Source of the DNA: a virus
Length of the DNA: 64,000 bases
Virus record (IMG/VR): IMGVR_UViG_3300017917_002918
Span: 1 to 64,000 of that record
Reading direction: 5' to 3' (one strand)
Part shown: one piece after another, positions 1,626 to 23,997 of the stretch
Layout of the letters: every line of letters begins with the position of its first letter
Numbering within the stretch: position 1 is the stretch's first letter
Program-made: the position numbers and the translations under genes
Notes under the pieces: generated by a model
What the model was told of the DNA's origin: nothing
The model's database searches: none
The model's input: the letters and a program-made list of their open reading frames with translations, nothing else

Positions 1626-1658
1626 TTTATCCATAAACAGAGAGGAGTGATTATTACA

Positions 1659-4600
1659 ATGGCTGAAATACCAAACATTATTGTCGGTGTCAAACTGGAC
1701 ACTTCAAATATAGGTAAACAAGTAGAAGAAATTAGTAAGAAATTTGAAACGAAACCTATTAAGTTAGGTTTTGAATTTAAATTAACAAATGATAATATAA
1801 AACAACAAATGAAAGTCATACAAGACAAATTCGACAATGCAAAAATTAATACAAACATAACTGTTGGTATTAAAGTAGATAGTCGTATTGGCGATATAAA
1901 TAGACAAATTAACCAATTATCAAAACAAATAACCGAGCAATTAAGTGTTAAATTAAAAATAGATGCCAGTGATTTAAATATAATCACTGAAAAAACCAAG
2001 CGAGTCCAAGAACAAGTTCAAATTGCTATGTCACAAAAAAATGTAAAACAAACACCTATATCATATTCTTCTCGTGAATACGAAAGCAGTCTCTTGGGTA
2101 CAAAGAAATCAGATATAGACAAGGCTTTGGATGATGTAATTTCCTCATACAAAGGTAAATTAAGTGACATAAAAGTAAATTTAAATGAAAGCTTGGACAT
2201 TGGTTCAGTAGTTGTTAAATACAAAGATTCAACAGGTAAAATGATTCAAGAAACTATGAAATGGGTGGATGTTGTCGAAGGACAATCCAATAAAGCAAAA
2301 AAAGCATTCAAAACAGTAAGCACCCAAATTGTAGATGACATGAGAAAAGAAGAACAACAAAAAGAAGCAATTCGCAAAAGAGAAGAACAAGAACTTGCGT
2401 CAAGGCAGAAACGTATTGATAAGTTCAAAGATTCTACTTTAAACAGAATTAGTGAAATGGAATCAAAAGATTATAAATACGCTAATCAATTGCGATTTGT
2501 AACCCCAACGAGCCAAGGTAATGTCGAATTAAAAAAAATTAGAAGTGTTGTTGAGGCATTAAATGCATCTACCATATCTTCTAAACAATTCGATAAAGAA
2601 ATTAAAAATATAACAAATAGTATTGATAAGCTTGAAAATAAAGCAATTAAACTTTATAAAGAAATAGATCAAGAGGCTAAAAACGCCACTAGAGGTATAA
2701 AGGCAAGTTTTTCAATAACTCCATTGGGTGATTATAGTACTCCAGGGAAAAAAGCTGGTATACAAAATCCCGCCTCTTTTGAGAAATCAACGGAAGCCAC
2801 AAGAAAATATTTACAATTAATATCACAATTCTCAGGAAAAAAACTCGATTTTGGCATTTTTGAAAGTCAATTCTCTTCGAAACAAATGAAAGAGACTGGT
2901 CAATTGATGACTAACATTGGCGTAAGAGTTTGGCATACAAAAAAAAGATATGAAGATTTAACAGTAAGTTTAAATGATTCTGATAAGTCCTTTAGATATT
3001 TGTCAAAAAGTATAAAAAATGCAGGTTTAAAAGACTTAAACTTTTCAGGGCAATTTATTGAAAACTTAAAGAAATTCCCAATATGGCTAGGTACTGCAAC
3101 AATTGTTATGCAAGGGTTGGCGTTATTTAGAACGGGTGCACAATACATATATGAGATGGATAAAGCATTAACCGATTTGACTAAAGTTGTTGACTTGAGT
3201 ATACCACAAATGCATGAAATGACTAATGCTGCGGTTGCTATGGGTAACGCATACGGTAAATCATCTGTAGAGATAATGAAGTCTATGGCTGAGTTTGGTC
3301 GTGTAACAAAGAATACTGATGAGATTAAGAAATTAACTGAATCTGCTACATTAGCGTCAAATGTAACAACAATGACTGCTGACGTTGCAGCTAAAGCATT
3401 GAATACAACTATGATGGCATTTAAAATAAATGCTAAAGATTCGATGGGAATAGTTGACAAATGGAATGAGTTAAAGTTCTCCATAAGTGACTCCTTATAC
3501 AGTAATGTATATGTAAAATGCTAGAGTATCGGAAAAACTCTGTTATTATACAGACAATTCCGAGGTAAACCCTTATTCAAGGGAAACCGTAACGACTGCA
3601 ATTAGCTACCCTACAAAAGAGGGTAAAGGTACAGTCTGAACATCGTAAGCGATTACGAGAAACGGCAGAAATGACCGTTCGCCATAGTACATATGGTCTG
3701 TAACTTAAATTACATATTTAGGTGAAAGTAACAGAATTTGGCAAAACAACTATAGGGTCTCAAGCGAAGATTTAGCAGATTCAATAGGTATTACAGGTAA
3801 CGTTGCACAACAAACTGGAATGTCATTTGAAAAATTAAATGCCATCACAACTGCAATGATCGCAACTACGGGAGCTACGGGAAGTGAAGCGGGAACGGCA
3901 TATTTCTGTGCCATAACAGCATAATACATAAACTGTTATTCAAAATTTATTCTAATATACGGTGAAACCCTAGCGATAGGCAACACCTTCCAATTTTTAA
4001 TGTTAATTAAAAAGGGAACAACGACTGAACGAATAAACCACATTTATGATGTGGATGCGACAGTCTGAACTTACGCTATAATCTAAAAATGAAACGTAAG
4101 AGTTAGAGTCAAGTGTAACCAGACACTTATTGAAGAACTCTAACCGCCATGTAGCAATATATGGTCAGTAGTCTAATGTAAATTAGATGAAAGTAACAGA
4201 ATGTAAAATCAACACTTTCAAGACTTTTCCGTATTGGCGAAGAAGGGGCAGACGATGCAGGTAAATCGGAAGAAGCTTTAAACAAACTAGGCATATCTGT
4301 CAGAAAAAACGCAACAGAGTTTCGTAATGCTTCTGACATAGTAGATGATTTGGCTAAAAGATTCAAAACTATGACATCTGTTGAACAAATAGCAATAGCA
4401 CAACAACTTGCGGGTTAATAATATGGCTCGAAAATACAGTAATGTATCGTTGAAGTTGGCTTTTATCGGGAAACACGTAGACATACGCAATTCCGAGGAT
4501 AAGACTTGATGAATAATCAAGAATCCGTAACGAGTCAGTGATTGTAACAGCAATGTTATGATCCACGCCAACCCCCTATATAATAGGGAGTGACCAATAT

Positions 4601-7600
4601 TTGCTAATTATATGGTCAAATATACTCATATATAAGCAAACGTAAAGCTCCGCATATAGAGAAATCTGTATGTAGAAATAGATGACGTATAACAATCTAT
4701 TCAATATCTCAACAACTGCTGGCAATCCCTAAAGCTAACTAAACCACAACGTAAGTATGAAACAAGACTAAGCGTGAGGGTGACGAAAGTAGAAAAAATT
4801 AGTTAGATAGTGCATGGTTAAATCCTAAACACTGTAATAATGGGTCTTCAGCAACATATGTCCGAACAGGATACTGCTCAACGACTATCCCTCTTGAGGG
4901 GAGTAGAGTCAAGCGACTCGAAATGAGAGACTCCAGAAATGGATGATGATATAGTCTGTGCTCATATGAAAGTATGAGAAGTTCATAAGAGAACTGGTGT
5001 AGATTAGCGACCTACATTGAACACGCTAAAAATATATCAAATGTGTATATTTTTATTTATTCAAAAAACATCAAGAATTATTCTTGATGTTTGGATGCAA
5101 AGTCTTTAAGAACAGTAATTATTAAATTATTAAAACTTCGATTTTGCTCTTTAGCTATTTGTTCTAATTGTTGTTTTAGTTCTTTTGAAATTGTAATATT
5201 GGTGCGTGTGTTGTGTTCAGCTACATTACCTGCCATAACAATCCCTCCTTTTAAAATTATTATATCATATTAACACATTGTAGTCAATTAGATCCCAAAC
5301 TATTGACAAACTGATTACAGTATGGTATGATAATGTTAGAAAGTGAGGTGAGAAAATATGATTAAAGGAATCACAATTAGACTACACCCAGATGAAAAAC
5401 AAGAACAATTATTATGGAAACATGTTAACTGTGCTAGATTTGTTTGGAATTATGGTTTGCGATTACAACAAGAAAGATTCAAAAATAAGGAAAAACATCT
5501 AAGTGGATATGATTTGAGAAAAGAAATTATAGCCTTGAAGAAAACAGATGATTTTATATGGCTAAATGAGATTTCAAGTCATACAACATTTAATATTTGC
5601 TTAGACTTAGATGGTGCTTATGGTAGATTTTTCAAAAAGGTAACTGGCAAACCAAAATTCAAAAAGAAAAACAGGTGCAAAAATAGTTTCCCAGTAAGAC
5701 AAGATAATTTGTATTTTAAAAATAATTGTGCTGTAGTTGAAAAAATCGGTAAAATCAAATATCAATCGGACTATAAAATACCACAAGGCAGGTTTGTTTA
5801 TAAGTTTAGTAATCCAAGAATTAAGTTTGAGAACAACAAATGGATTATGACGATTGGTATGGAGTACGAGAACCAAGTACATAATTTAACCGATAAGAAA
5901 ATGGGAATAGATTTAGGAGTAAAAGAATTAGCTGTAGTATCCTTTGGAACTGAAAATATAGTTTTTAAAAATATCAATAAGACAAAGAGAGTTAAAACCT
6001 TAAAACATAAACTTAAACATCTACAGAAAGATGTTAATAGAAAATATGAAACCAATAATAAAAACAAGGTTTATGATAAAAAGTGGTCTAAGTCTAATGG
6101 TATAAAAAAACTAGAAAATCAGATAAAGGATATACATTGTAAACTATCAAATATTCGTAAGAACCACATTCATCAAAGCACTAATAGTCTCGTCAAGTTA
6201 TTGCCATATAAGATAACAATGGAAGACTTAAATATTAGTGGAATGATGAAAAACAGGCATCTATCTAAAGCAATAGCAGAACAATGTTTATATGAGTTCA
6301 CAAGACAAATTAAATATAAATGTGAATTTAATGGTATAGAATTTGTGCAAGTAGACAGATTTTATCCATCAAGTAAAACATGCTCTTGTTGTGGAAGCTT
6401 AAAGAAGGACTTAAAGCTAAAAGATAGAGTTTATAAGTGCAATTGTGGATTAGAAATTGATAGAGATTATAATGCGGCTATTAATTTAATGAATTATTCA
6501 AACGTTTGAAATATTGAGAGACGTTTGTCTTAGGGAAATTGGTGTATCCTTGAATGTTGCGGAGTGTTATATCAAATGAAAGTAGGTTTAACCGAAATCA
6601 GACACTATGAAACAACGAATAAATAAAAATGTACCCAAATGTGTATATTTTTAGCATCAGAAGATGGACTCTGAACTACACTATAATGTAAACAAGAAGG
6701 TGTAGAAGTGGCAGAAATGACCACTCGCCATAATGCTTATGGTCTGTAACTTTGGTAACAAAGTGAAAGTAACAGAATGACATACCATTACTCCAAGCTA
6801 ATCGGTGTACTTAACAATTATGATGTTGCACTAGAAGCAAATAAAATGCAATTACACTCACAAGGTTCTGCTTATTCCGAGAACCAGAAAAGAATGGATT
6901 CATTTGAGGGCAGGTTGGGAAAACTTAAAACAACTGTAGAAAGTTTCTGGAATTCTTCTATTAATTCAGACCTATTCAAAGGCATGATTTCTGGTTTAAC
7001 TGTTTTAATAGATAAGTTCGGTAATCTTGGGACTGTGTTATCGTTGATAGGCACTGGTTTAGCTCTTTGGAAAGGAAATGAAATTTTAAGTTTCTTCAAA
7101 ACCCTTCCTGCTTCAATTTCAACATCTATTAAAGAGATGACATTGTTTAAAAACATTGCTCTTGCCATGGAATTACGAGAATTGGGATTATTGACAACCA
7201 CTCAGCTATTAAGTAGTAGTTTCAAAGCTTTAGGTATTTCTATAAAAAATGCATTCTTATCTAATCCATTAGGCTGGATTGCAATGGGTTTTACGGCTGT
7301 TACAATGGCAGTGGATATGTTTGGTCAAAAAGCTGAAGAATCTAAGCAACAAATCAAGGATAGTATAGAAGCATATAAATCACTAAATACCGAAGTAGAT
7401 TCGCTTACTGCAACATACATAGAGATTGGAGATAAGTGGAAGACTGATAATGACGAAAAGAAAAAATTAATTGAAACAGAGACTAGACTCAAAGAGATAT
7501 TCGGAGAATCTGCAAAAGCATTAAATTTACAGACCGGAACAGTTGATGATAATATAAAGAAGTTTAAAGAACTAAAAGCGATTAAAGATGCTGAATTTTT

Positions 7601-10600
7601 GTTAGAAAACAAAACAAAAATAAACAATGCGAAAGATAGACTTTCGAGCTACAAGTCTGAGAGCTTTTTCTCGGATTCTCCAGCCGACACTTTGAATTTA
7701 GCTCCCGAGTTGTTAGGAAAAATATTTGCGGGCAATCCAAAACAAGTTTTAGCTCAATTAGAATCAGAATTAGCGTTGTTGGGAAAGAGACTTGACGAAG
7801 TTAAAGCAAAGGGAACTCCATTCGATGTGAACCAATACTCGTATTCTTTTGACTTAGTTAATGCCAAAATAAAAGAATATAAAGAAAATATCAAACCTGA
7901 TACCGATTTACTGGAACAGGCAGATCAAAAAGAAAAAGCTATTGCAGAAACTAAAATACTAAATCTTGATAAATTAAATGAAAAACAAACAGCAGTATAT
8001 ACTAATTTAAAAAATTTTGTAAAGTATAGTAATGCAGATCAATATCAAAAAGACTTACAACAAGTTCAGGTTATACTCTCTAGTTTTGATGGTAAAAATG
8101 TAGCAGAGGTTGAGCAACAACTTAGAGCAATAGCAAACTTACCAAATAAAGACATAGAAACAGTAATGAAATCTCTTGCCGATGGTACTTATAAATCTGG
8201 TAAATCTGCCGAAGAATCAAAAAAGGCAGAAGAAGAATTAAATAAAACAATATCAAATTCAATTAACAACATACAAACATTAAACTCTGCGCAGGATGAA
8301 TTAAATGAGAATCATAAGTTATCTACACAAACATTAGAATCAGTTGCAAATAAGTACCCTGAACTGTTGGCTTATATGAATGACGAAGTTCTGATGAGTC
8401 AAAAAATCCAAGAAAAAATAAAACAAGAAAAAGATGATTATGTTGATGCTAGTTATAAAAAAATAGAATCTAACCAAAGTTTTTTTGATAATGTCATCAA
8501 AAACGACAAAGAACTGTGGAGTACTTTAAGTGATGCTTATGGGGATGATTTAAAAAACTTTAAGTCATTAGAGGATGCAAAATTAGAGATAGATAACGAA
8601 ATATCTGCACAAATACTTACTAATTGGATGCAATTAGATGCAACGACAAAAGAAATAATGAGAACCAACATTGACCTGTTGGGGGAAGCGTTAGGATCAG
8701 ATGTCCCTAATGGGCAAGATTCATACGATTTGGCAATGAAAGCATCTACTGGAATGATGAAGGCTGGAGCAACAGAAGATGATGTCGCAAAGGCTGTCGA
8801 TAGTGGAGCTGCTTTAAAAGTAAATAAAATGAAAAAGGCACTCGATACCGCTAAAGCAAAAACAGATGAAATTTTTAGAAATGCTAATTTTGGAGACGGT
8901 AGAAAAAGTAGTGGTTCTACTAGTGCTGGTTCTTCTTCCCCAGCCATCAATGAAGAGGTATACAAAGTAGAAAAAGACCGTTACATGGGTTTAAATCAAG
9001 TTTTAACCTCAGTTAATAATTCGTTAGAAAAGAATCAAGCATTACAGAAAAATGCTACTATTGAAGAACGCGTTAAGTTAATAGCAGAAGAAATTGAACT
9101 GCTACGACAAAAACGCAAAGCTATTAATGACATTGCATGGGAACAAAGTCAGGAAGCAAAAGAGAAAAAGGCTTACCTTGAAAAGAATAATGTTAAATTT
9201 GATCAAAACGGTAACATTGACAAGGCATCCTACGACAGTGTAATTGACTCTATAGCCAACAACACAGAATCAATGAAACGTAAGGGTAATGCTACAAAAA
9301 TTGCTGAAAATAATCAACTCTTGAAAAATCTAGAACAGGCTAATAAAGATTACTTGAGTGCTACTGCTAATGCTGCAAAGAGTATCAATGAACGTGAAAG
9401 TTTAACTGGTGATATATTCGCTAAGCAAAATGATAAGACTAAAGCCGAGATAGAATCCGTACTTGCACCACTAGGGGAACACTTAACTGATTTGAATGAT
9501 CAGTTAACAGGACTGCAAAGTAAATATGATCTATTGGGTGAAAGTGAATTCGATTCAAAGATTGAGAATATTAATAAGCAAATAGTTAATCAAAAACTTG
9601 CATTAATTGATACTGATAAAGCGTTGTCTGAGCTAAGAGCTAAATACAATAAACAAGATACCAATGCCATTGAAAAAAAGGAAATACTAAAAGAAATTGT
9701 AAAGCTTGAAAATGATAGCCTTAGTATAAAAAAAACAATGGTTGCATTAGGTGATAAGCGAGCGGATCAGTTAAAAGAAGATACAGAAAAGGCACTTAAT
9801 GAAAAAGATTTAGCCATTGAGAAAATTGGAGAAATAGAAACAGAAGGTCAAATTGCAAAAAAAATTAGTTTAATCAAAGAAAAGATATCTGCGAGAACTG
9901 GTTATATAGATGAAGTAAATGCATATACGAAACGATTGGAATACAACAAAGAAAATGAAAAGTCAGATATATTTGTTTCACAAAACTCTACGGGCGCAAA
10001 ATATTTAAAAGAACTTCCAGCTATGCAAAAAGCAAATGCTAATGATTTAAAAGAAATTAATACTTTAAATCTTGAACTTGCTAAGAAACAAGTTGAAAAG
10101 TTCGATCTTGCCCTTGAAGAATTAAGTGCTACTACCAGTAAGTTTAAAGAAGAGTTGGACTTCTTAAAAGAATGGCAACCACAGAACTTTGAATCTATAA
10201 ACACATTGATTAGTGGTGTAATCACTAATACTCAGGCAGAAATTAATCAATTAAAGACTATGGAAACTTCCTATATCGCCAAACGTGATCAAGCTAGACA
10301 AGATGGTGACATAGAATCTTTTAAATTGTTTGATGACTTGTTGAAAAAGACATATCAAAATGAACAAAATAAGATCATGGAAAACGCCAAGTTGAAGAAG
10401 GAACAACTTCAAAACTCATTCTCTGAGCAGAATAGAAACATTGAAAAATTGCTATTTGGTGATTCTTCGCAAAAAGCAGAGCAAGATAGAATCAATTCAT
10501 TAAAAAAAGAACAAGACACCTACATTTCTGGCGAAGAAAAAGTGTATGCGTTAAATTTAATGCGAACGGAACTCAATAAATACAATAGTGACATACAGAA

Positions 10601-11690
10601 TAAAAAGATAACAATATATGATGCAGAATTAGATAGACTAGAAAAAATTGATAAAATAACTCGTGATGATCTAGATACTTTGAAGAAGAAAATTGAAATA
10701 AAACAACTTGAGTTAAAATTAGATAATTTGAGAGAAGAAAAGACAATTAAGGTTTTAAGAAAGCAAGCTGATGGTAAGTATGCTTGGAAATTTGAAGCAG
10801 ATCAAGGTGCAATCAACGAAACAGAGAGTCAACTAGCTTCTAGTAGAATCGATCTAATTAAAACTCAAAAAGACAAAAGTATCAAAGCACAAGAGGATGA
10901 TCTTAATCAAAAAATTGATTATATGAACGAAGTTAAGGAAATACAACAAAAAGCCTTAAACGGTGAATACAAAACGCAGGAAGAGTTCACGGCTGACATG
11001 ACTAGAGTTAATGGTAAATTAAGTACGAATTATAAAAATATGTGGTTTGGTATAACTTCAACTCAAGCAAATGCTTCTGTTCTAATGAATGATTATCAAA
11101 GTAATATTGTAACTTCTTATGCTACATTTACAACTAGCATGAAAGAACTTTCGGCTAGCTTATCTGAATCTGTACAGAATTCTGCAAACGCATTACTTAA
11201 TTCTGTTGCACAATTAGAAGAACTGGCTAGACGTGCTGAGGCTGCAAGGGCTACGATTACTGGTCAGGCTATGGTATCATTCACAGGAGGTTCTATAAAA
11301 AATGGCGTTCCTCAACCAGAAAATAGACCCTCTTCTAGTGCAAATATAAACACAACACTTAAAAATGCATGGACTAACATACAGGGTTATCATGCTGACG
11401 GGATAGAATCAGGAGCGGTAACTAAAAATGGAACATATATGTTACATGGATCTGAGTCTTCTCCTGAATGGGTGTTAACAACAGAACAAATGAAAACATT
11501 TATACGAAATATGGCTTCTAAAGCTTCATCTTCATTTACGATCAAGAAACCATTAGCACCTTCATTTTATAATAGTGGTGATACTTCCAATGTTAAATCT
11601 GAAGTGTACAGTTTTAACATTGATACAATTCAGACCAATGATGTTACTAACTTAATTAATAGTATGAAAAGAAAGATTAGATCTAATTAA
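1659..11690 (+). CDS. Tail tape measure protein, four exons split by three group I introns
   Basis: The tape measure protein sets tail length and forms the tail lumen scaffold. Exons reconstruct as 1659-3472, 3741-3901, 4204-4415 and 6780-11690: 7098 nt, exactly 2366 codons including stop. Across the joins the protein reads WNE|LQNNYRVSSEDLADS, GTA|LKSTLSRLFRIGEEG and QQLAG|TYHYSKLIGVLNN, restoring the conserved TP901-type tape measure core (residues about 490-760). Coiled coil precedes it, hydrophobic helices follow near 780-900, and a long coiled coil fills most of the rest. AGGAG near 1642 supports ATG 1659; GTG 1647 is too close to it. The intact reading frame across all exons argues the gene is functional after splicing. 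Confidence 0.9.
3473..3740 (+). ncRNA. Group I intron 1 in the tape measure gene (268 nt, no ORF)
   Basis: Core elements resemble group IA: CAATTCCGAG (P4 strand), GTAACGACT (5' strand of P7) and CAGTCTGAAC (3' strand of P7). The 5' exon ends GAGTT, and the internal guide GACTC just inside the intron pairs with it, leaving the expected U.G at the splice site. The intron ends in G (3740) after GAAAGTAACAG. Splicing restores the frame in phase 2. It encodes no endonuclease, so mobility would need one in trans. Confidence 0.88.
3902..4203 (+). ncRNA. Group I intron 2 in the tape measure gene (302 nt, no ORF)
   Basis: The 5' exon ends GGCAT and the guide GTGCC lies within the first dozen bases, pairing with a terminal U.G. 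P7 strands AACGACT and CAGTCTGAAC are present, and the end GAAAGTAACAGAATG matches introns 1 and 3. Splicing is in phase 1 and joins GTA to LKSTLSRLF. Common 3' ends suggest the three introns share ancestry. Confidence 0.87.
5078..5236 (-). CDS. Small ribbon-helix-helix protein inside the IStron
   Basis: A 52-aa gene reading MAGNVAEHNTRTNITISKEL at its start, a typical Arc/CopG-type beta strand (RTNITISKEL) followed by two helices. It has a strong AGGAGGG site seven bases upstream and its own promoter, and runs divergently from tnpB. Its last codons lie in a perfect hairpin (5070-5089) that may end transcription. Such proteins usually bind operators as dimers, so it may repress itself and tnpB. 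It occupies the place where tnpA would be expected; a role in mobility is speculation. Confidence 0.75.
   Translation of the reverse strand: MAGNVAEHNTRTNITISKELKQQLEQIAKEQNRSFNNLIITVLKDFASKHQE
5259..5287 (-). promoter_or_regulatory. Promoter of the small RHH gene
   Basis: On the minus strand, TTGACT (5282-5287) and TATAAT (5259-5264) with a 17-bp spacer. It lies back to back with the tnpB promoter at 5303. Confidence 0.75.
5303..5331 (+). promoter_or_regulatory. tnpB promoter
   Basis: TTGACA (5303-5308), 17-bp spacer, TATGAT (5326-5331), followed by a GAGGTGA site ahead of tnpB. Only 15 bp separate it from the divergent RHH promoter, so one bound protein could control both. Confidence 0.75.
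5358..6509 (+). CDS. tnpB: TnpB, RNA-guided RuvC nuclease of the IStron
   Basis: A full-length 383-aa TnpB. The N-terminal helix-turn-helix/WED region is recognisable (R-F-V-W-N-Y near residue 30). RuvC motifs are complete: Asp in KMGIDLGV (about 186), Glu in ITMEDLNISG (about 290) and Asp in EIDRDYNAA (about 373). A four-cysteine zinc ribbon, TCSCCG...YKCNCG, lies between the last two. TnpB proteins use a transposon-end RNA to cut empty target sites and so favour retention of the element. The gene sits inside the inner group I intron, so intron splicing and guide RNA formation would draw on the same transcript. Confidence 0.93.
   Translation: MIKGITIRLHPDEKQEQLLWKHVNCARFVWNYGLRLQQERFKNKEKHLSGYDLRKEIIALKKTDDFIWLNEISSHTTFNICLDLDGAYGRFFKKVTGKPKFKKKNRCKNSFPVRQDNLYFKNNCAVVEKIGKIKYQSDYKIPQGRFVYKFSNPRIKFENNKWIMTIGMEYENQVHNLTDKKMGIDLGVKELAVVSFGTENIVFKNINKTKRVKTLKHKLKHLQKDVNRKYETNNKNKVYDKKWSKSNGIKKLENQIKDIHCKLSNIRKNHIHQSTNSLVKLLPYKITMEDLNISGMMKNRHLSKAIAEQCLYEFTRQIKYKCEFNGIEFVQVDRFYPSSKTCSCCGSLKKDLKLKDRVYKCNCGLEIDRDYNAAINLMNYSNV
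6510..6660 (+). ncRNA. Probable right-end guide RNA (omegaRNA) region of the IStron
   Basis: TnpB guide RNAs are processed from the 3' end of tnpB and the transposon right end. This 150-bp stretch has no ORF, contains the inner intron's 3' end and finishes in an AT-rich hairpin (6624-6652). The guide would start after 6660 in outer intron sequence. This rests on family knowledge; no processing signal can be proved here. Confidence 0.45.
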
Positions 11691-19653: not shown

Positions 19654-21191
19654 TGGCATATTTAAGTGATTTTACAAAGAAAGAAGCATATGGTAACCAA
19701 GTAGAAATTTCAGGTATTGAAAGTATAATTCATGAAGACACAGCAAATCAAGCTACGTATGGTAATCATTGTGAATTGTCAAATACTAAAATTGTAGCAG
19801 TATATAATGATGTAACAAACAACAAAGGTATGGTTAGAGTTGGAGATAGAGTGTCTGATTTTTGTATCGAATGGGGTGAACCATTGGAATTTTACAACGG
19901 TTCTTGTAAACATATTATACCTATTAGAGTTAGTGATACAAAATTCGCAATTGTATATGTTCAAGCATCTGATGATGATGGATATATTATAGCAGGGACT
20001 ATTAGTAATACTATACCAACCATAGGCACTCCTATAGAATTTAAGGACGCATCTACTTGTATACCTATAGGTGCGGAACTTTGGAGTGATGACAAGGTGT
20101 TAATAGCATATGCAAACGGAACTACAAATGGGCAGTGTAGAGTTGTAGACACCAGTAATATTAATACATTAGTATTGGGTACAGAAGCTACGTTTAAAGC
20201 AACGACCGATATATCAGCCTATACAACATTAAAGCAAGTATGCATACATAGTCCAACACTTGCCACAGTGGTGTATAGAGTATCAAACACTGCTACAAAA
20301 TGTCAATGTTTAACATTGAGTGGTTCAACTATTACACCAAGTGGATCAGAAACTACATTTGGTGGTACGGCAGATATACAGTATCCAAAAATAGGATGTT
20401 TGTCATCAACAACATTTGTTTTGGCATATTTGGATGTAACTGCTACTAACTTTGGAAACTGCCAAATAGGTACTATTTCGGGAACGTCTATAACAGCGGG
20501 AGCCAATGAATATTCGTTTCAAGCAGTAGATTTACCTACTAGAAGACATAGTATTGTAGTAATAGATGGTACTAAGTATGCAATTATATATTCTGATGGA
20601 ACAACGGGTCAATTTGCTTGTGTTGCAACTGTAAATGGAACAACCATAAGTTATTCAAACGCATCCAATATTGGCACAGGGAGTAATGGTTATTATTATG
20701 GTGAAAGTTTTAATGGTACAACAAATTTAACATACACGAAATCCAATCAATTAACATTTAGTTGGTTAAATCGTTACAATAATCAATTCATATGTGGTAT
20801 GCTTGAAATACAAACACATGCAATAATACCAAAAGCCATGTGCAAAAGAGTGGTTACCGTAGGATTAAATGAACAAATAGAAATATCTAGTGTTTATTTA
20901 AAAAGTAATAGTAGGGGTTTCAAAATGAATAGTTCCTTTGTAACTGCTATCACAGGTAGTTTATATTTGGATGGTACAATGTCCAATAATATGTTTTATT
21001 CAACTTCAGACGAAGGAGAAGGAATGGGGTATTATACTTATGAAAGAGAATGTGCCAAAGTTTTATTAGGTAATAATCCTATAATTCTTAAATCGGGACA
21101 ATCTCTATATGCAAGTATAAACACAAATCAAAGTTCGCACAGTGGAAAAGGATCTTGTACTGTTTTTGGTGTTAAAAGGGTGGTGGTCTAA
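19653..21191 (+). CDS. Beta-propeller-like tail fibre protein
   Basis: A 512-aa beta-rich protein. Recurrent units of about 50 residues contain a hydrophobic strand ending A-x-x-Y (IVAVYND, FAIVYVQ, VLIAYAN, FVLAYLD, YAIIYSD), a propeller-like pattern. The last 120 residues look like a separate jelly-roll domain. It overlaps its neighbours by one or two bases on both sides, implying a tight translation unit. A receptor-binding role is plausible but unproved. Confidence 0.6.
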   Translation: MAYLSDFTKKEAYGNQVEISGIESIIHEDTANQATYGNHCELSNTKIVAVYNDVTNNKGMVRVGDRVSDFCIEWGEPLEFYNGSCKHIIPIRVSDTKFAIVYVQASDDDGYIIAGTISNTIPTIGTPIEFKDASTCIPIGAELWSDDKVLIAYANGTTNGQCRVVDTSNINTLVLGTEATFKATTDISAYTTLKQVCIHSPTLATVVYRVSNTATKCQCLTLSGSTITPSGSETTFGGTADIQYPKIGCLSSTTFVLAYLDVTATNFGNCQIGTISGTSITAGANEYSFQAVDLPTRRHSIVVIDGTKYAIIYSDGTTGQFACVATVNGTTISYSNASNIGTGSNGYYYGESFNGTTNLTYTKSNQLTFSWLNRYNNQFICGMLEIQTHAIIPKAMCKRVVTVGLNEQIEISSVYLKSNSRGFKMNSSFVTAITGSLYLDGTMSNNMFYSTSDEGEGMGYYTYERECAKVLLGNNPIILKSGQSLYASINTNQSSHSGKGSCTVFGVKRVVV

Positions 21192-21400
21192 TGCTTATAA
21201 TCACAAATAAAAATTTTAAAATATTAAACGTGCTAGATACTATTGAATTTGTTGATACTAACTGGGTTAAACTACATGGTGATAATTTAATACAATTGGA
21301 TATGGTTATTATAACCGAGGTTGAGTCAATTCCTGAAGATGTAGAGTATTACAAAGATGGTGTGTTTACAGAATTGTGCCAGAAAGCCTCCACGCTTTAG
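21191..21400 (+). pseudogene. 5' part of a small tail gene split by the TnpB element
   Basis: It encodes about 62 tail-like residues (MLIITNKNFKILNVLDT onward, to GVFTEL), then runs into the element's left-end hairpin and stops within its TTTAG loop. The likely continuation is at about 23776-23997. The start overlaps the previous stop. The protein may still be made in truncated form. Confidence 0.6.
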
Positions 21401-21430
21401 CGTGTGAGGATGAATGGCATAATAACCGTG

Positions 21431-21444
21431 TAATTAAATTATAA
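21431..21444 (+). promoter_or_regulatory. Dispersed operator-like motif upstream of the Xre gene promoter
   Basis: TAATTAAATTATAA ends three bases before the -35 box at 21448, so a bound protein could occlude RNA polymerase. Confidence 0.5.
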
Positions 21445-21447
21445 TTA

Positions 21448-21476
21448 TTGACAAAGCCATATTGCTATGATATTAT
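21448..21476 (+). promoter_or_regulatory. Promoter of the Xre-type gene
   Basis: TTGACA (21448-21453), 17-bp spacer, TATTAT (21471-21476). Confidence 0.75.
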
Positions 21477-21548
21477 ATTCTCAATATATATTATAGTTAC
21501 CAATATCAAATAAATCATATATAATATGTATTGAGGAGTGTGATTAAT

Positions 21549-21755
21549 ATGGCAATAAAAAATAGATTGAAAGAGATATTAGAAGAACGTGGAATTAAAC
21601 AGTCATTTATAGTAGAAAAATGTGGATTAACTAAAGGTACAGTATCTAATCTTGTTAACAATAAATACACTACAAGTATTGATATAGCCTTTAAAATCGC
21701 AAAACTATTAAATATGAATTTCACTGATATATTCTATGATGATGAAAATGAATAA
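21549..21755 (+). CDS. Xre/Cro-family helix-turn-helix regulator
   Basis: A 68-aa single-domain HTH_3 protein. Its recognition region, KQSFIVEKCGLTKGTVSNLV, is the classic Cro/CI pattern, followed by two capping helices. GAGGAG lies upstream and ATG 21549 (MAIKNRLKEI) is the natural domain start; the longer GTG form is less likely. It lies within the TnpB element and may control the element or phage promoters. Its targets are unknown. Confidence 0.85.
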   Translation: MAIKNRLKEILEERGIKQSFIVEKCGLTKGTVSNLVNNKYTTSIDIAFKIAKLLNMNFTDIFYDDENE

Positions 21756-21800
21756 TGTTTGTTTAATTAAAACCTTTGTTTATTATCTTGAACTAAAGTA

Positions 21801-21829
21801 TTGACAAAACAAACTATTTCCTATATAAT
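21801..21829 (+). promoter_or_regulatory. Promoter ahead of the small zinc protein
   Basis: TTGACA (21801-21806), 17-bp spacer, TATAAT (21824-21829): a consensus vegetative promoter. Its transcript could run on into the TnpB homologue. Confidence 0.82.
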
Positions 21830-21881
21830 ATAGTTATAGGGTTGATATAAGCCTTAATATATTATATAGGAGGTATTACAT

Positions 21882-22067
21882 ATGAAGTTAAATCAATTCG
21901 GTGATGAGATATTCCAATGTGTACTATGTAATCAAGAATTTGAGTTAGAACATGATAAGCCATATTTATTAAAGGGTAGTTTGTCAAGAGATTCACATAA
22001 CCAAGAGATCGAAATACATATTTGTGAATACTGTGCCTGTAAGTTAGGTCAATGGGATGAAGTTTAA
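21882..22067 (+). CDS. Small four-cysteine zinc-ribbon protein
   Basis: A 61-aa protein with two C-x-x-C pairs (CVLC near residue 13, CEYC near 50), consistent with one zinc ribbon. AGGAGG precedes ATG 21882. It stands between the Xre gene and the TnpB homologue. No specific function is recognised. Confidence 0.7.
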   Translation: MKLNQFGDEIFQCVLCNQEFELEHDKPYLLKGSLSRDSHNQEIEIHICEYCACKLGQWDEV

Positions 22068-22116
22068 ATTATAATTATATAAACAAATATAAATAAGAAT
22101 GTGAGGTGAATATTCA

Positions 22117-23613
22117 TTGAGTGATAGATTTTGTATTACATTTCCACTAGCAACCGAACTATACCAAGAAGATATATTAGGGAAAAGATTTGAAATAGGT
22201 AGAAAAATATATAATGCTCTTTTGGGCAAGGTATATAAAAGATATAATTGTATGATACAAACTCGTAAATACAGAGAGTTAAAATCACAGGTTGCATTAT
22301 TGTATAAATCAGCCGACAAAGCTAGTCAAAAAGAACTAAAATCAGTGTATGCAGAATTGAATGAAATGTATAAACTATATAGACTTAATGAATATTTCCT
22401 TCACGAAGATGTTAAATTTATGCAACACCAATTCAAGGTTAATATAGACGCATTCACAGCTCAAAAAATAGCTACTAGAGTTTGGAGAGCAGTAGACGAT
22501 TTATTATTCGGTGAAGCAGAATCACTACACTTTAAAAAACATGGTGAGTTAGATTCTCTAGAAGGGAAGTGGAATAAATCAGGAATTAAATTTAAAGACA
22601 ACTGTGTAACATGGAATGGATTAAAAATACCAGTTAAAATTAATTATAATAATCCATATGAATATCAAGCCATGCAAAATGATATATGTTTTTGTAGAAT
22701 TAAACGTAAATTTGTGCGTGGTAAGTATAAGTATTACCTACAGTTGGTTTTAAAGGGTTTTCCACCAATGAAAATAGACAAAGAAACTGGAGAAATCAAA
22801 AGATGTATCAGAACAGGTAAAGTTGGATTAGACATAGGAACTCAAACTATTGCTATTAGTAGTAATACAGATGTTAAATTATTAGAACTTGCCGATAGAG
22901 TCCAAAATATAGAGAATGATAAACGCAGACTACTTAGATACATGGACAGAAGTAAACGAGCTAACAATCCAGATAACTTTAACGAAAATGGTACGGTAAA
23001 AAAACAAGGTAATAAAAAGGTTAAATGGGTTAAAGGTAATAAATATAGCAAAGCTCAAAATAAACTCAGAGAATTATATCGCAAACAAGCAGATATTAGG
23101 AAACTGCAACATGAACAATTATCAAATTGTATAATATCATTAGGTGATGAAATATACGTTGAAACCATGAACTTTAATGGATTACAACGCAGAGCTAAAA
23201 ATACCACAGTCAATGAAAAAACAGGTAGAATCAATAAGAAAAAGAGATTTGGTAAATCATTGGCAAATAAAGCTCCTGCGATGCTAATTAAGATTATCGA
23301 TAGAAAATTAGGATATTTTAATAAAGAAATAATAAAAATTAATACATGGACTGTAAAAGCAAGTCAATATAATCATTTTGATGGCGAATGTAATAAAAAG
23401 CAATTATCAACTAGATGGAATAATTTCAACGGTTTAAAGATTCAAAGGGACTTGTATTCAGCATTTTTAATTATGAATGTAAATAACGATTTAAGTAGTG
23501 TTAATAAGGAATTATGTGATAATAGTTTTAATAAGTTTAAGATATTACATGACAAAGAGATTAATAGATTGATGAGTGTGAAGTTAAACAATGCGTTGAA
23601 AAATGTGATATAG
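22117..23613 (+). CDS. Divergent TnpB-family RuvC nuclease without zinc ribbon
   Basis: A 498-aa protein starting at TTG 22117 after GTGAGGTGA. RuvC residues are intact: Asp in VGLDIGTQTI (about 238), Glu in IYVETMNF (about 349) and Asp in KIQRDLYSAF (about 449). The region between the last two, where TnpB normally has four zinc-binding cysteines, has only one Cys (DGECNKKQ). It is longer than usual TnpB. This suits a specialised or domesticated branch that keeps nuclease residues, unlike TldR regulators, whose RuvC site is degraded. Confidence 0.82.
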   Translation: MSDRFCITFPLATELYQEDILGKRFEIGRKIYNALLGKVYKRYNCMIQTRKYRELKSQVALLYKSADKASQKELKSVYAELNEMYKLYRLNEYFLHEDVKFMQHQFKVNIDAFTAQKIATRVWRAVDDLLFGEAESLHFKKHGELDSLEGKWNKSGIKFKDNCVTWNGLKIPVKINYNNPYEYQAMQNDICFCRIKRKFVRGKYKYYLQLVLKGFPPMKIDKETGEIKRCIRTGKVGLDIGTQTIAISSNTDVKLLELADRVQNIENDKRRLLRYMDRSKRANNPDNFNENGTVKKQGNKKVKWVKGNKYSKAQNKLRELYRKQADIRKLQHEQLSNCIISLGDEIYVETMNFNGLQRRAKNTTVNEKTGRINKKKRFGKSLANKAPAMLIKIIDRKLGYFNKEIIKINTWTVKASQYNHFDGECNKKQLSTRWNNFNGLKIQRDLYSAFLIMNVNNDLSSVNKELCDNSFNKFKILHDKEINRLMSVKLNNALKNVI

Positions 23614-23775
23614 AAATAAGACGGGTTTTGAATTGAGCCTATATGCTAACGTCAATGAGTTAGTTGTAACTCTTGTTAGTGAAAGTCTTACAGAAATCAA
23701 TTAGTGATAATAAATCTCGATTTATTATAGAATTTGAATAGTATGTAAGAACCTGCCGAGCTTTAGCTCGTGCAG
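23614..23775 (+). ncRNA. Probable guide RNA scaffold 3' of the TnpB homologue
   Basis: This 160-bp non-coding stretch between the TnpB stop and the right-end hairpin holds stems such as CTAACG...TGTTAG and TAAATC...GATTTA. It ends in the hairpin whose right arm reads GCTTTAGCTCGTGCAGAGATTC, the style of IS605 right ends that form the 3' scaffold of omegaRNAs. The putative guide would be the start of the tail-gene remnant. Expression is unproved. Confidence 0.5.
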
Positions 23776-23997
23776 AGATTCAGATCTTACAATCCACTTA
23801 TTCAGGATGCAAGTTTGAAAGAGTATAAATCTAAAGTAAAAGAACTCATAAGAAAAAGATATGAGTCTGCTGAGGAAGAGCTTGCTATAATGAGAAAGCA
23901 TGTAGCAGGTATAGATAATAAGAATGAATTCGATGACTACAATACTTATGTTGAAAATTGTAAATTACAAGCTAAAGAAGAACTGGGCTTAGTGTAA
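23770..23997 (+). pseudogene. 3' part of the split tail gene
   Basis: The frame from about 23776 encodes SYNPLIQDASLKEYKSKVKE and a helical tail of about 70 residues, with no Shine-Dalgarno ahead of GTG 23770. It fits as the C-terminal part of the gene begun at 21191; together they would give roughly 135 residues. Its reading frame is still intact. Confidence 0.5.

What the first reader, a model, noticed from the sequence alone, without database searches (positions are those of the whole stretch)
21387..23775. TnpA-less TnpB element carrying Xre and zinc-protein cargo splits a tail gene
Same-orientation hairpins with a TTTA loop and unpaired T (CCTC-CACGC and CTGC-CGAGC) mark both ends. The flanking half genes (21191 and 23776) would rejoin to a tail protein of about 135 aa. 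The TnpB homologue keeps RuvC residues but has lost the zinc ribbon, and two small genes with consensus promoters ride along. A helix-turn-helix regulator inside a TnpB element in a phage invites the idea of guide-directed control or defence against related phages.
Basis: partly seen in the sequence, partly recalled or inferred. Interest (0 to 1): 0.7.

Follow-up and report, generated by a model that had tools for sequence, protein, structure and literature searches.

The report
Phage TnpB element with regulated cargo
A small mobile element carrying an RNA-guided DNA-cutting enzyme has jumped into a tail gene of a large bacterial virus; it has no jumping enzyme of its own, carries two tightly controlled small genes, and has left a second, separately placed guide RNA elsewhere in the same virus.

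Summary
The right end is fixed by a second copy in the same 167-kb phage record; the left end by related phage elements with the same terminus. Cutting it out rejoins the flanks in frame to a 130-aa protein, and a related phage has the first half in an uninterrupted 129-aa gene. It is an IS200/IS605-type TnpB element without TnpA. TnpB keeps its D-E-D nuclease site and has the TnpB fold (Z 22 to ISDra2 TnpB). The missing zinc ribbon is a trait of the whole clade (108 of 109), not a local loss. A covarying guide-RNA scaffold lies at the 3' end. New here: a standalone second copy of that scaffold (G000 85878-86088, minus) with another guide and a strong upstream promoter, and two cargo genes each with a near-consensus promoter and a hairpin burying the ribosome site, unique among 22 strong promoters in the window. 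Most likely TnpB cuts element-free alleles and spreads the element by homing; the Xre/zinc pair is autonomous cargo. Guide-directed regulation or defence is unsupported, though the standalone guide makes it testable.

The parts
21191..21369 (+). 5' part (60 codons) of the interrupted tail-region gene
   Evidence: Conserved half of L008 6565-6954, about 50% identical over its first 60 aa
21365..21369 (+). Target pentanucleotide TTTAC (transposase target and expected TAM of TnpB)
   Evidence: Precedes the left end here and in L014 and L023
21370..23783 (+). Complete TnpA-less IS200/IS605-type TnpB element
   Evidence: Left terminus shared with L014/L022/L023; right terminus fixed by the second copy
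21383..21409 (+). Left end: guide tetranucleotide AAAG plus hairpin CCTCCACGC-TTTA-GCGTGTGAGG
21448..21536 (+). Xre promoter TTGACA-N17-TATTAT (21448-21476) and 17-bp RNA hairpin (21479-21536) burying its ribosome site
21549..21755 (+). Cargo gene 1: 68-aa Xre (Cro/C1-type HTH) protein
   Evidence: PF13443 1e-10, PF01381 4e-10
21801..21875 (+). Zinc-protein promoter TTGACA-N17-TATAAT (12 of 12) and hairpin (21815-21875) whose 5' arm overlaps the -10 box and whose 3' arm holds the ribosome site
21882..22067 (+). Cargo gene 2: 61-aa protein with two CxxC pairs, no homologue found
22117..23613 (+). TnpB, 498 aa, RuvC D239/E349/D445 intact, no zinc ribbon
   Evidence: PHROG 506 1.7e-49, NCBIfam guided_TnpB 1.7e-19, fold match to ISDra2 TnpB Z 22.2
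23621..23783 (+). Guide-RNA (omegaRNA/reRNA) scaffold overlapping the right end
   Evidence: 26 consensus pairs, 15 with compensatory changes over 15 sequences; model R1 hit
23753..23783 (+). Right-end hairpin CTGCCGAGC-TTTA-GCTCGTGCAG followed by terminal AGATTCAG
23784..23803 (+). Expected guide: first ~20 nt of the right flank (ATCTTACAATCCACTTATTC)
   Evidence: Inference from ISDra2 TnpB biology (PMC8612924); position follows from the fixed right end
23784..23997 (+). 3' part of the interrupted gene, in frame once rejoined

Best explanation
This is a TnpA-less IS200/IS605-type TnpB element inserted 3' of TTTAC in a small phage gene of the tail operon. Shown: the ends, the in-frame empty site, an intact TnpB active site and fold, a covarying guide-RNA scaffold at the right end, two cargo genes with their own promoters, and a second standalone scaffold copy. 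Inferred: the element moves when a TnpA in the host or a co-infecting phage acts on its hairpins. TnpB loads a guide RNA whose guide is the first ~20 nt after TTCAG and cuts TTTAC+ATCTTACAATCC in phage genomes that still have the intact gene, so repair or loss of the cut genome favours the element (homing, or gene drive). The Xre and zinc-protein genes are an independently transcribed cargo pair. The zinc gene's hairpin cannot form in transcripts from its own promoter but can in read-through from the late tail operon, so it is expected to be expressed only from its own promoter; the Xre hairpin probably damps translation in both. Xre may also bind the similar AT-rich palindromes at both promoters.
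For: Ends and empty site; uninterrupted homologue; single TnpB and no TnpA in the record; D-E-D conserved in 105 of 109 relatives and dN/dS about 0.16-0.30, with dS near saturation; AlphaFold pLDDT 92 and Z 22.2 over 325 residues to ISDra2 TnpB 8EXA; covarying scaffold; three related phage elements with the same ends also lack TnpA, while most of the clade carries it; an apparently intact TnpA with an identical right-end hairpin in phage L019, a possible trans source; cargo hairpins z -3.2 and -4.9 against dinucleotide shuffles and the only 2 of 22 strong promoters with such a hairpin; standalone scaffold scoring as high as the element's. TAM, guide and homing logic from PMC8612924; gene drive from PMC11870625.
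Against: No element-free allele of this exact gene was found, so the target is predicted, not observed. Activity of a zinc-ribbonless TnpB is untested here and I know of no test. Trans mobilisation is inferred. No expression data. The C-terminal half has no homologue, so the gene's function is unknown.
Confidence: 0.7

Rival explanations
1. The element is inert debris: stranded without TnpA, with TnpB no longer acting, and the standalone scaffold just a deletion remnant.
For: No TnpA in the record; the scaffold copy has lost its left end and tnpB; no target found.
Against: TnpB frame intact, catalytic triad kept, dN/dS well below 1; both hairpins and terminal guide motifs intact; standalone scaffold 151/155 identical against 39/45 in the adjoining stretch, p = 0.01, and its model score equals the element's.
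Confidence: 0.2
2. Domesticated guide-directed regulator or inter-phage exclusion system: TnpB uses two guides, and Xre controls its expression.
For: Two guide-RNA loci for one TnpB in one phage, where 10 related records show each scaffold beside a tnpB; sigma-70-type promoter TTGACA-N17-TAATAT upstream of the standalone copy; HTH regulator within the element.
Against: RuvC triad intact, so not a TldR-type dead repressor; Xre relatives are not linked to TnpB; only one genome shows this set; no target for either guide found outside its own locus.
Confidence: 0.1
3. An IStron: the insertion is spliced out of the mRNA by a group I intron, so the tail gene still works.
For: Group A IStrons end in TCAG after a T-rich pentanucleotide (PMC4227781), as here; the same phage has group I introns in its tape-measure gene.
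Against: Intron_gpI model hits 4 places in the record at E<=10, none in the element; P7-like motif ACAGTCTGAAC occurs only in the tape-measure introns; the 5' segment is filled by promoters and Xre; Rfam negative. Rfam also missed two of the apparent tape-measure introns, so the negative is not absolute.
Confidence: 0.03

Closest known systems
IS200/IS605 TnpB elements (ISDra2; IS608 end architecture; ISCbt1-like elements of C. difficile phages)
   Same: Subterminal hairpins with an extrahelical T, pentanucleotide target not duplicated, TnpB fold and RuvC triad, guide RNA from the right end
   Different: No TnpA; no zinc ribbon (whole clade); two cargo genes between left end and tnpB; an extra standalone scaffold in the same genome
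TnpA-less phage relatives L014, L022, L023
   Same: Same left and right ends, TnpB 51-56% identical, no TnpA
   Different: 128-142 nt from hairpin to tnpB against 730 nt here: no cargo
Group A IStrons (CdISt1)
   Same: T-rich pentanucleotide target, TCAG 3' end, IS605-type ORF B
   Different: No group I intron detected
TldR nuclease-dead TnpB repressors of prophages
   Same: TnpB homologue and guide RNA in a phage
   Different: RuvC catalytic residues intact here

Membership tests
TnpB (IS200/IS605) RNA-guided nuclease | WED/REC plus RuvC fold of TnpB | tested here: met
   Z 22.2, 325 residues, rmsd 3.2 to 8EXA; Foldseek E 3e-12 to 8IAZ
TnpB (IS200/IS605) RNA-guided nuclease | RuvC D-E-D catalytic residues | tested here: met
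   D239, E349, D445; 105 of 109 aligned relatives
TnpB (IS200/IS605) RNA-guided nuclease | Zinc ribbon between RuvC II and III (usual in TnpB, not taken here as required) | tested here: not met
   No CxxC there; absent in 108 of 109 relatives, present only in L132. A clade trait that leaves fold and triad intact
TnpB (IS200/IS605) RNA-guided nuclease | Structured guide RNA from 3' end of tnpB and right end | tested here: met
   15 of 26 pairs with compensatory changes
TnpB (IS200/IS605) RNA-guided nuclease | RNA-guided DNA cleavage | not testable with these tools
   Needs biochemistry
IS200/IS605 transposon | Subterminal hairpins, target tetra/pentanucleotide, precise ends | tested here: met
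IS200/IS605 transposon (autonomous) | TnpA (Y1 transposase, PF01797) | tested here: not met
   None in the 167,401-b record; so TnpB-only, non-autonomous
IStron | Group I intron in the 5' part | tested here: inconclusive
   No RF00028 or P7-motif hit in the element, but the model also misses two apparent introns of this phage
TldR repressor | Inactivated RuvC site | tested here: not met
Anti-phage defence system | Guide matching other phages and exclusion phenotype | tested here: inconclusive
   17-nt TAM+guide pattern found only in unrelated genes; phenotype untestable here

The most novel reading that the evidence does not exclude
A phage TnpB with two physically separate guide RNAs, one in its element and one kept as a standalone gene in a 5' leader elsewhere, guards or cleaves two loci of competing phages, under control of an Xre regulator carried in the same element.
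Probability: 0.13. Interest if true: 0.75.

Novelty: new variant of a known kind. Interest (0 to 1): 0.5.

Why it matters
TnpB is thought to be the ancestor of Cas12. A phage element that has shed its transposase, kept the nuclease, gained an insulated regulator cassette and left a separate guide RNA behind a strong promoter is a plausible early step from selfish transposon towards a guide-array system, and phage crosses make its homing directly testable. The clade without a zinc ribbon is a natural test of which parts of TnpB are dispensable.

Tried and rejected
Searching for an intact tail allele with the rejoined 130-aa protein in viral contigs, phages and plasmids: nothing. Searching TTTAC+guide: 8 hits, all in unrelated proteins that happen to read FTSYNP or in other frames. 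Searching a 23-nt scaffold core in viral contigs for sister copies: none. Seeking a conserved Xre-zinc-TnpB set: no zinc-protein homologue; one Xre-like domain upstream of a TnpB in L027 is the C-terminus of a 327-aa phage protein, judged coincidental. Idea that hairpin-buried ribosome sites are this phage's general style: rejected, only the 2 cargo promoters of 22 show it. Idea that the standalone guide targets the phage's repeated promoter motif (TAATTAAATTATAATTAT, 15 copies): it resembles it, but no site with TTAC in front at 0-1 mismatches. PDB sequence search with a 4-sequence profile found nothing, so the fold comparison was used.

Full report
Observation. They are subterminal, not terminal.

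Ends. A search of the whole virus record (167,401 b) with the element found a second partial copy at G000 85878-86088, minus strand. The two copies are identical through the right-end hairpin to AGATTCAG and then diverge completely, which places the right end at 23783. On the left, three phage elements (L014, L022, L023) share TTTAC (or a derivative) followed by a short linker, GCCAGAAAG, the hairpin and ATGAATGG. This is the IS608-like layout of target, guide tetranucleotide AAAG and hairpin (IS608 layout from my own knowledge), so the element begins at 21370, after TTTAC at 21365-21369. The TCAG right end is shared by most of the clade.

Interrupted gene. Joining 21369 to 23784 gives an uninterrupted 130-aa frame. 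In phage contig L008 the upstream tail gene (57% identical) is followed by a 129-aa gene whose first 60 residues are about 50% identical to ORF 21191; similarity ends at the insertion point, and the remainder does not match the window's downstream half. So the conserved N-terminal domain stays intact in the truncated product and the variable C-terminal part is stranded. ORF 23770 starts inside the right-end hairpin and is not a separate gene.

TnpB. The protein matches PHROG 506 transposase (1.7e-49) and NCBIfam guided_TnpB (1.7e-19, below its curated cut-off). An AlphaFold model from 73 relatives (pLDDT 92) matches ISDra2 TnpB with Z 22.2 over 325 residues. D239, E349 and D445 are conserved in 105 of 109 relatives, and dN/dS against five relatives is about 0.16-0.30, with dS near saturation. 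The zinc ribbon is missing in 108 of 109; L132, which keeps it, shows where the cysteines were. Loss is therefore old and shared, including with elements that carry intact TnpA.

No TnpA. PF01797 gives no hit in the record. Most relatives carry TnpA just upstream of tnpB, but L014, L022 and L023, which share these ends, do not. L019, another phage, has an apparently intact TnpA and an identical right-end hairpin, so trans mobilisation is plausible but not shown.

Guide RNA. The 3' region (23621-23783) aligned over 15 elements gives 26 consensus pairs, 15 of them with compensatory changes. By the established mechanism (PMC8612924) the guide is the flank after TTCAG and the TAM is TTTAC. The predicted target is the empty tail-gene allele. 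No such allele was found, and the record has no other copy.

Standalone guide RNA. The covariance model finds exactly two scaffolds in the record: the element's (137.9 bits) and the standalone copy (140.6 bits); the element's sequence and the copy were both among the 15 that built the model. The copy has no tnpB or left end, lies between two genes in what looks like the loop of a 5'-leader hairpin, and has TTGACA-N17-TAATAT upstream. Its scaffold is 151/155 identical to the element's, against 39/45 for the adjoining stretch (p = 0.01). In ten related phage records every scaffold sits beside a tnpB. It is either a deletion remnant or a retained second guide; the data lean only mildly to the second.

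Cargo. In L014, L022 and L023 tnpB starts 128-142 nt after the left hairpin begins; here the distance is 730 nt, holding Xre and the zinc protein. Each has a near-consensus promoter (11 and 12 of 12) and a long hairpin that buries its ribosome site (z -3.2 and -4.9). None of the other 20 strong promoters in the window shows this. For the zinc gene the 5' arm overlaps the -10 box, so only read-through transcripts can form the hairpin: translation is expected only from its own promoter. For Xre most of the arm lies after the likely start site, so damping is expected in both. The zinc protein has no detectable homologue; Xre relatives in viruses are ordinary phage regulators not linked to TnpB. 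The phage's own repeated motif TAATTAAATTATAATTAT (15 copies, 0.25 expected) lies just upstream of the Xre promoter, which hints that this segment was picked up within this phage lineage.

Mechanism. Best supported: a non-autonomous TnpB element that persists by cutting element-free alleles (homing or gene drive, compare PMC11870625) and carries two autonomous passenger genes. Regulation or defence is possible but unsupported, and the intact RuvC site argues against a TldR-type repressor (PMC13418256). The IStron reading is unlikely because no group I intron is detectable in the element, although the ends match group A IStrons (PMC4227781).

Novelty. The parts are known kinds: TnpB-only IS605 elements, hairpin ends, guide RNA from the right end. 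What I did not find described in the held papers is the combination in one phage: cargo pair with hairpin-buried ribosome sites plus a standalone scaffold. The literature search was limited to open-licence papers, and several key TnpB papers were not held, so novelty is stated with that reserve.

Noticed in passing
window 1647-11690: The tape-measure gene is split by three apparent group I introns (about 3524-3737, 3911-4202, 4415-6778) with open exons between them (IWQNNYRVSSEDLADS.., KSTLSRLFRIGEEGADD.., TYHYSKLIGVLNNYD..). The introns share GAAAGTAACAGAA near their 3' ends and two share ACAGTCTGAAC; Intron_gpI hits 4794-4978 at 8e-6.
   Followed up: partly
window 5358-6618: Inside the third intron lies a second, different TnpB (383 aa, zinc ribbon intact) followed by a RAGATH-18 RNA, the known guide RNA of IS607 TnpBs (PMC11061315): a group B IStron-like element, so this phage carries two different RNA-guided nuclease systems.
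   Followed up: partly
G000 162153-162719 (outside the window): Two further Intron_gpI matches side by side, one above the family cut-off.
   Followed up: no
window, 15 sites (e.g. 21431, 24255, 46036, 51069): A phage-wide motif TAATTAAATTATAATTAT, 15 copies against 0.25 expected, often just before a ribosome site and on the minus strand often joined to a perfect TTGACA/TATAAT promoter: probably the extended start region of this phage's promoters.
   Followed up: partly
L022 and L023 around 2790-2850: Two related phage contigs carry the TnpA-less element after the same upstream flank; L022 shows a small duplication at the left terminus.
   Followed up: no
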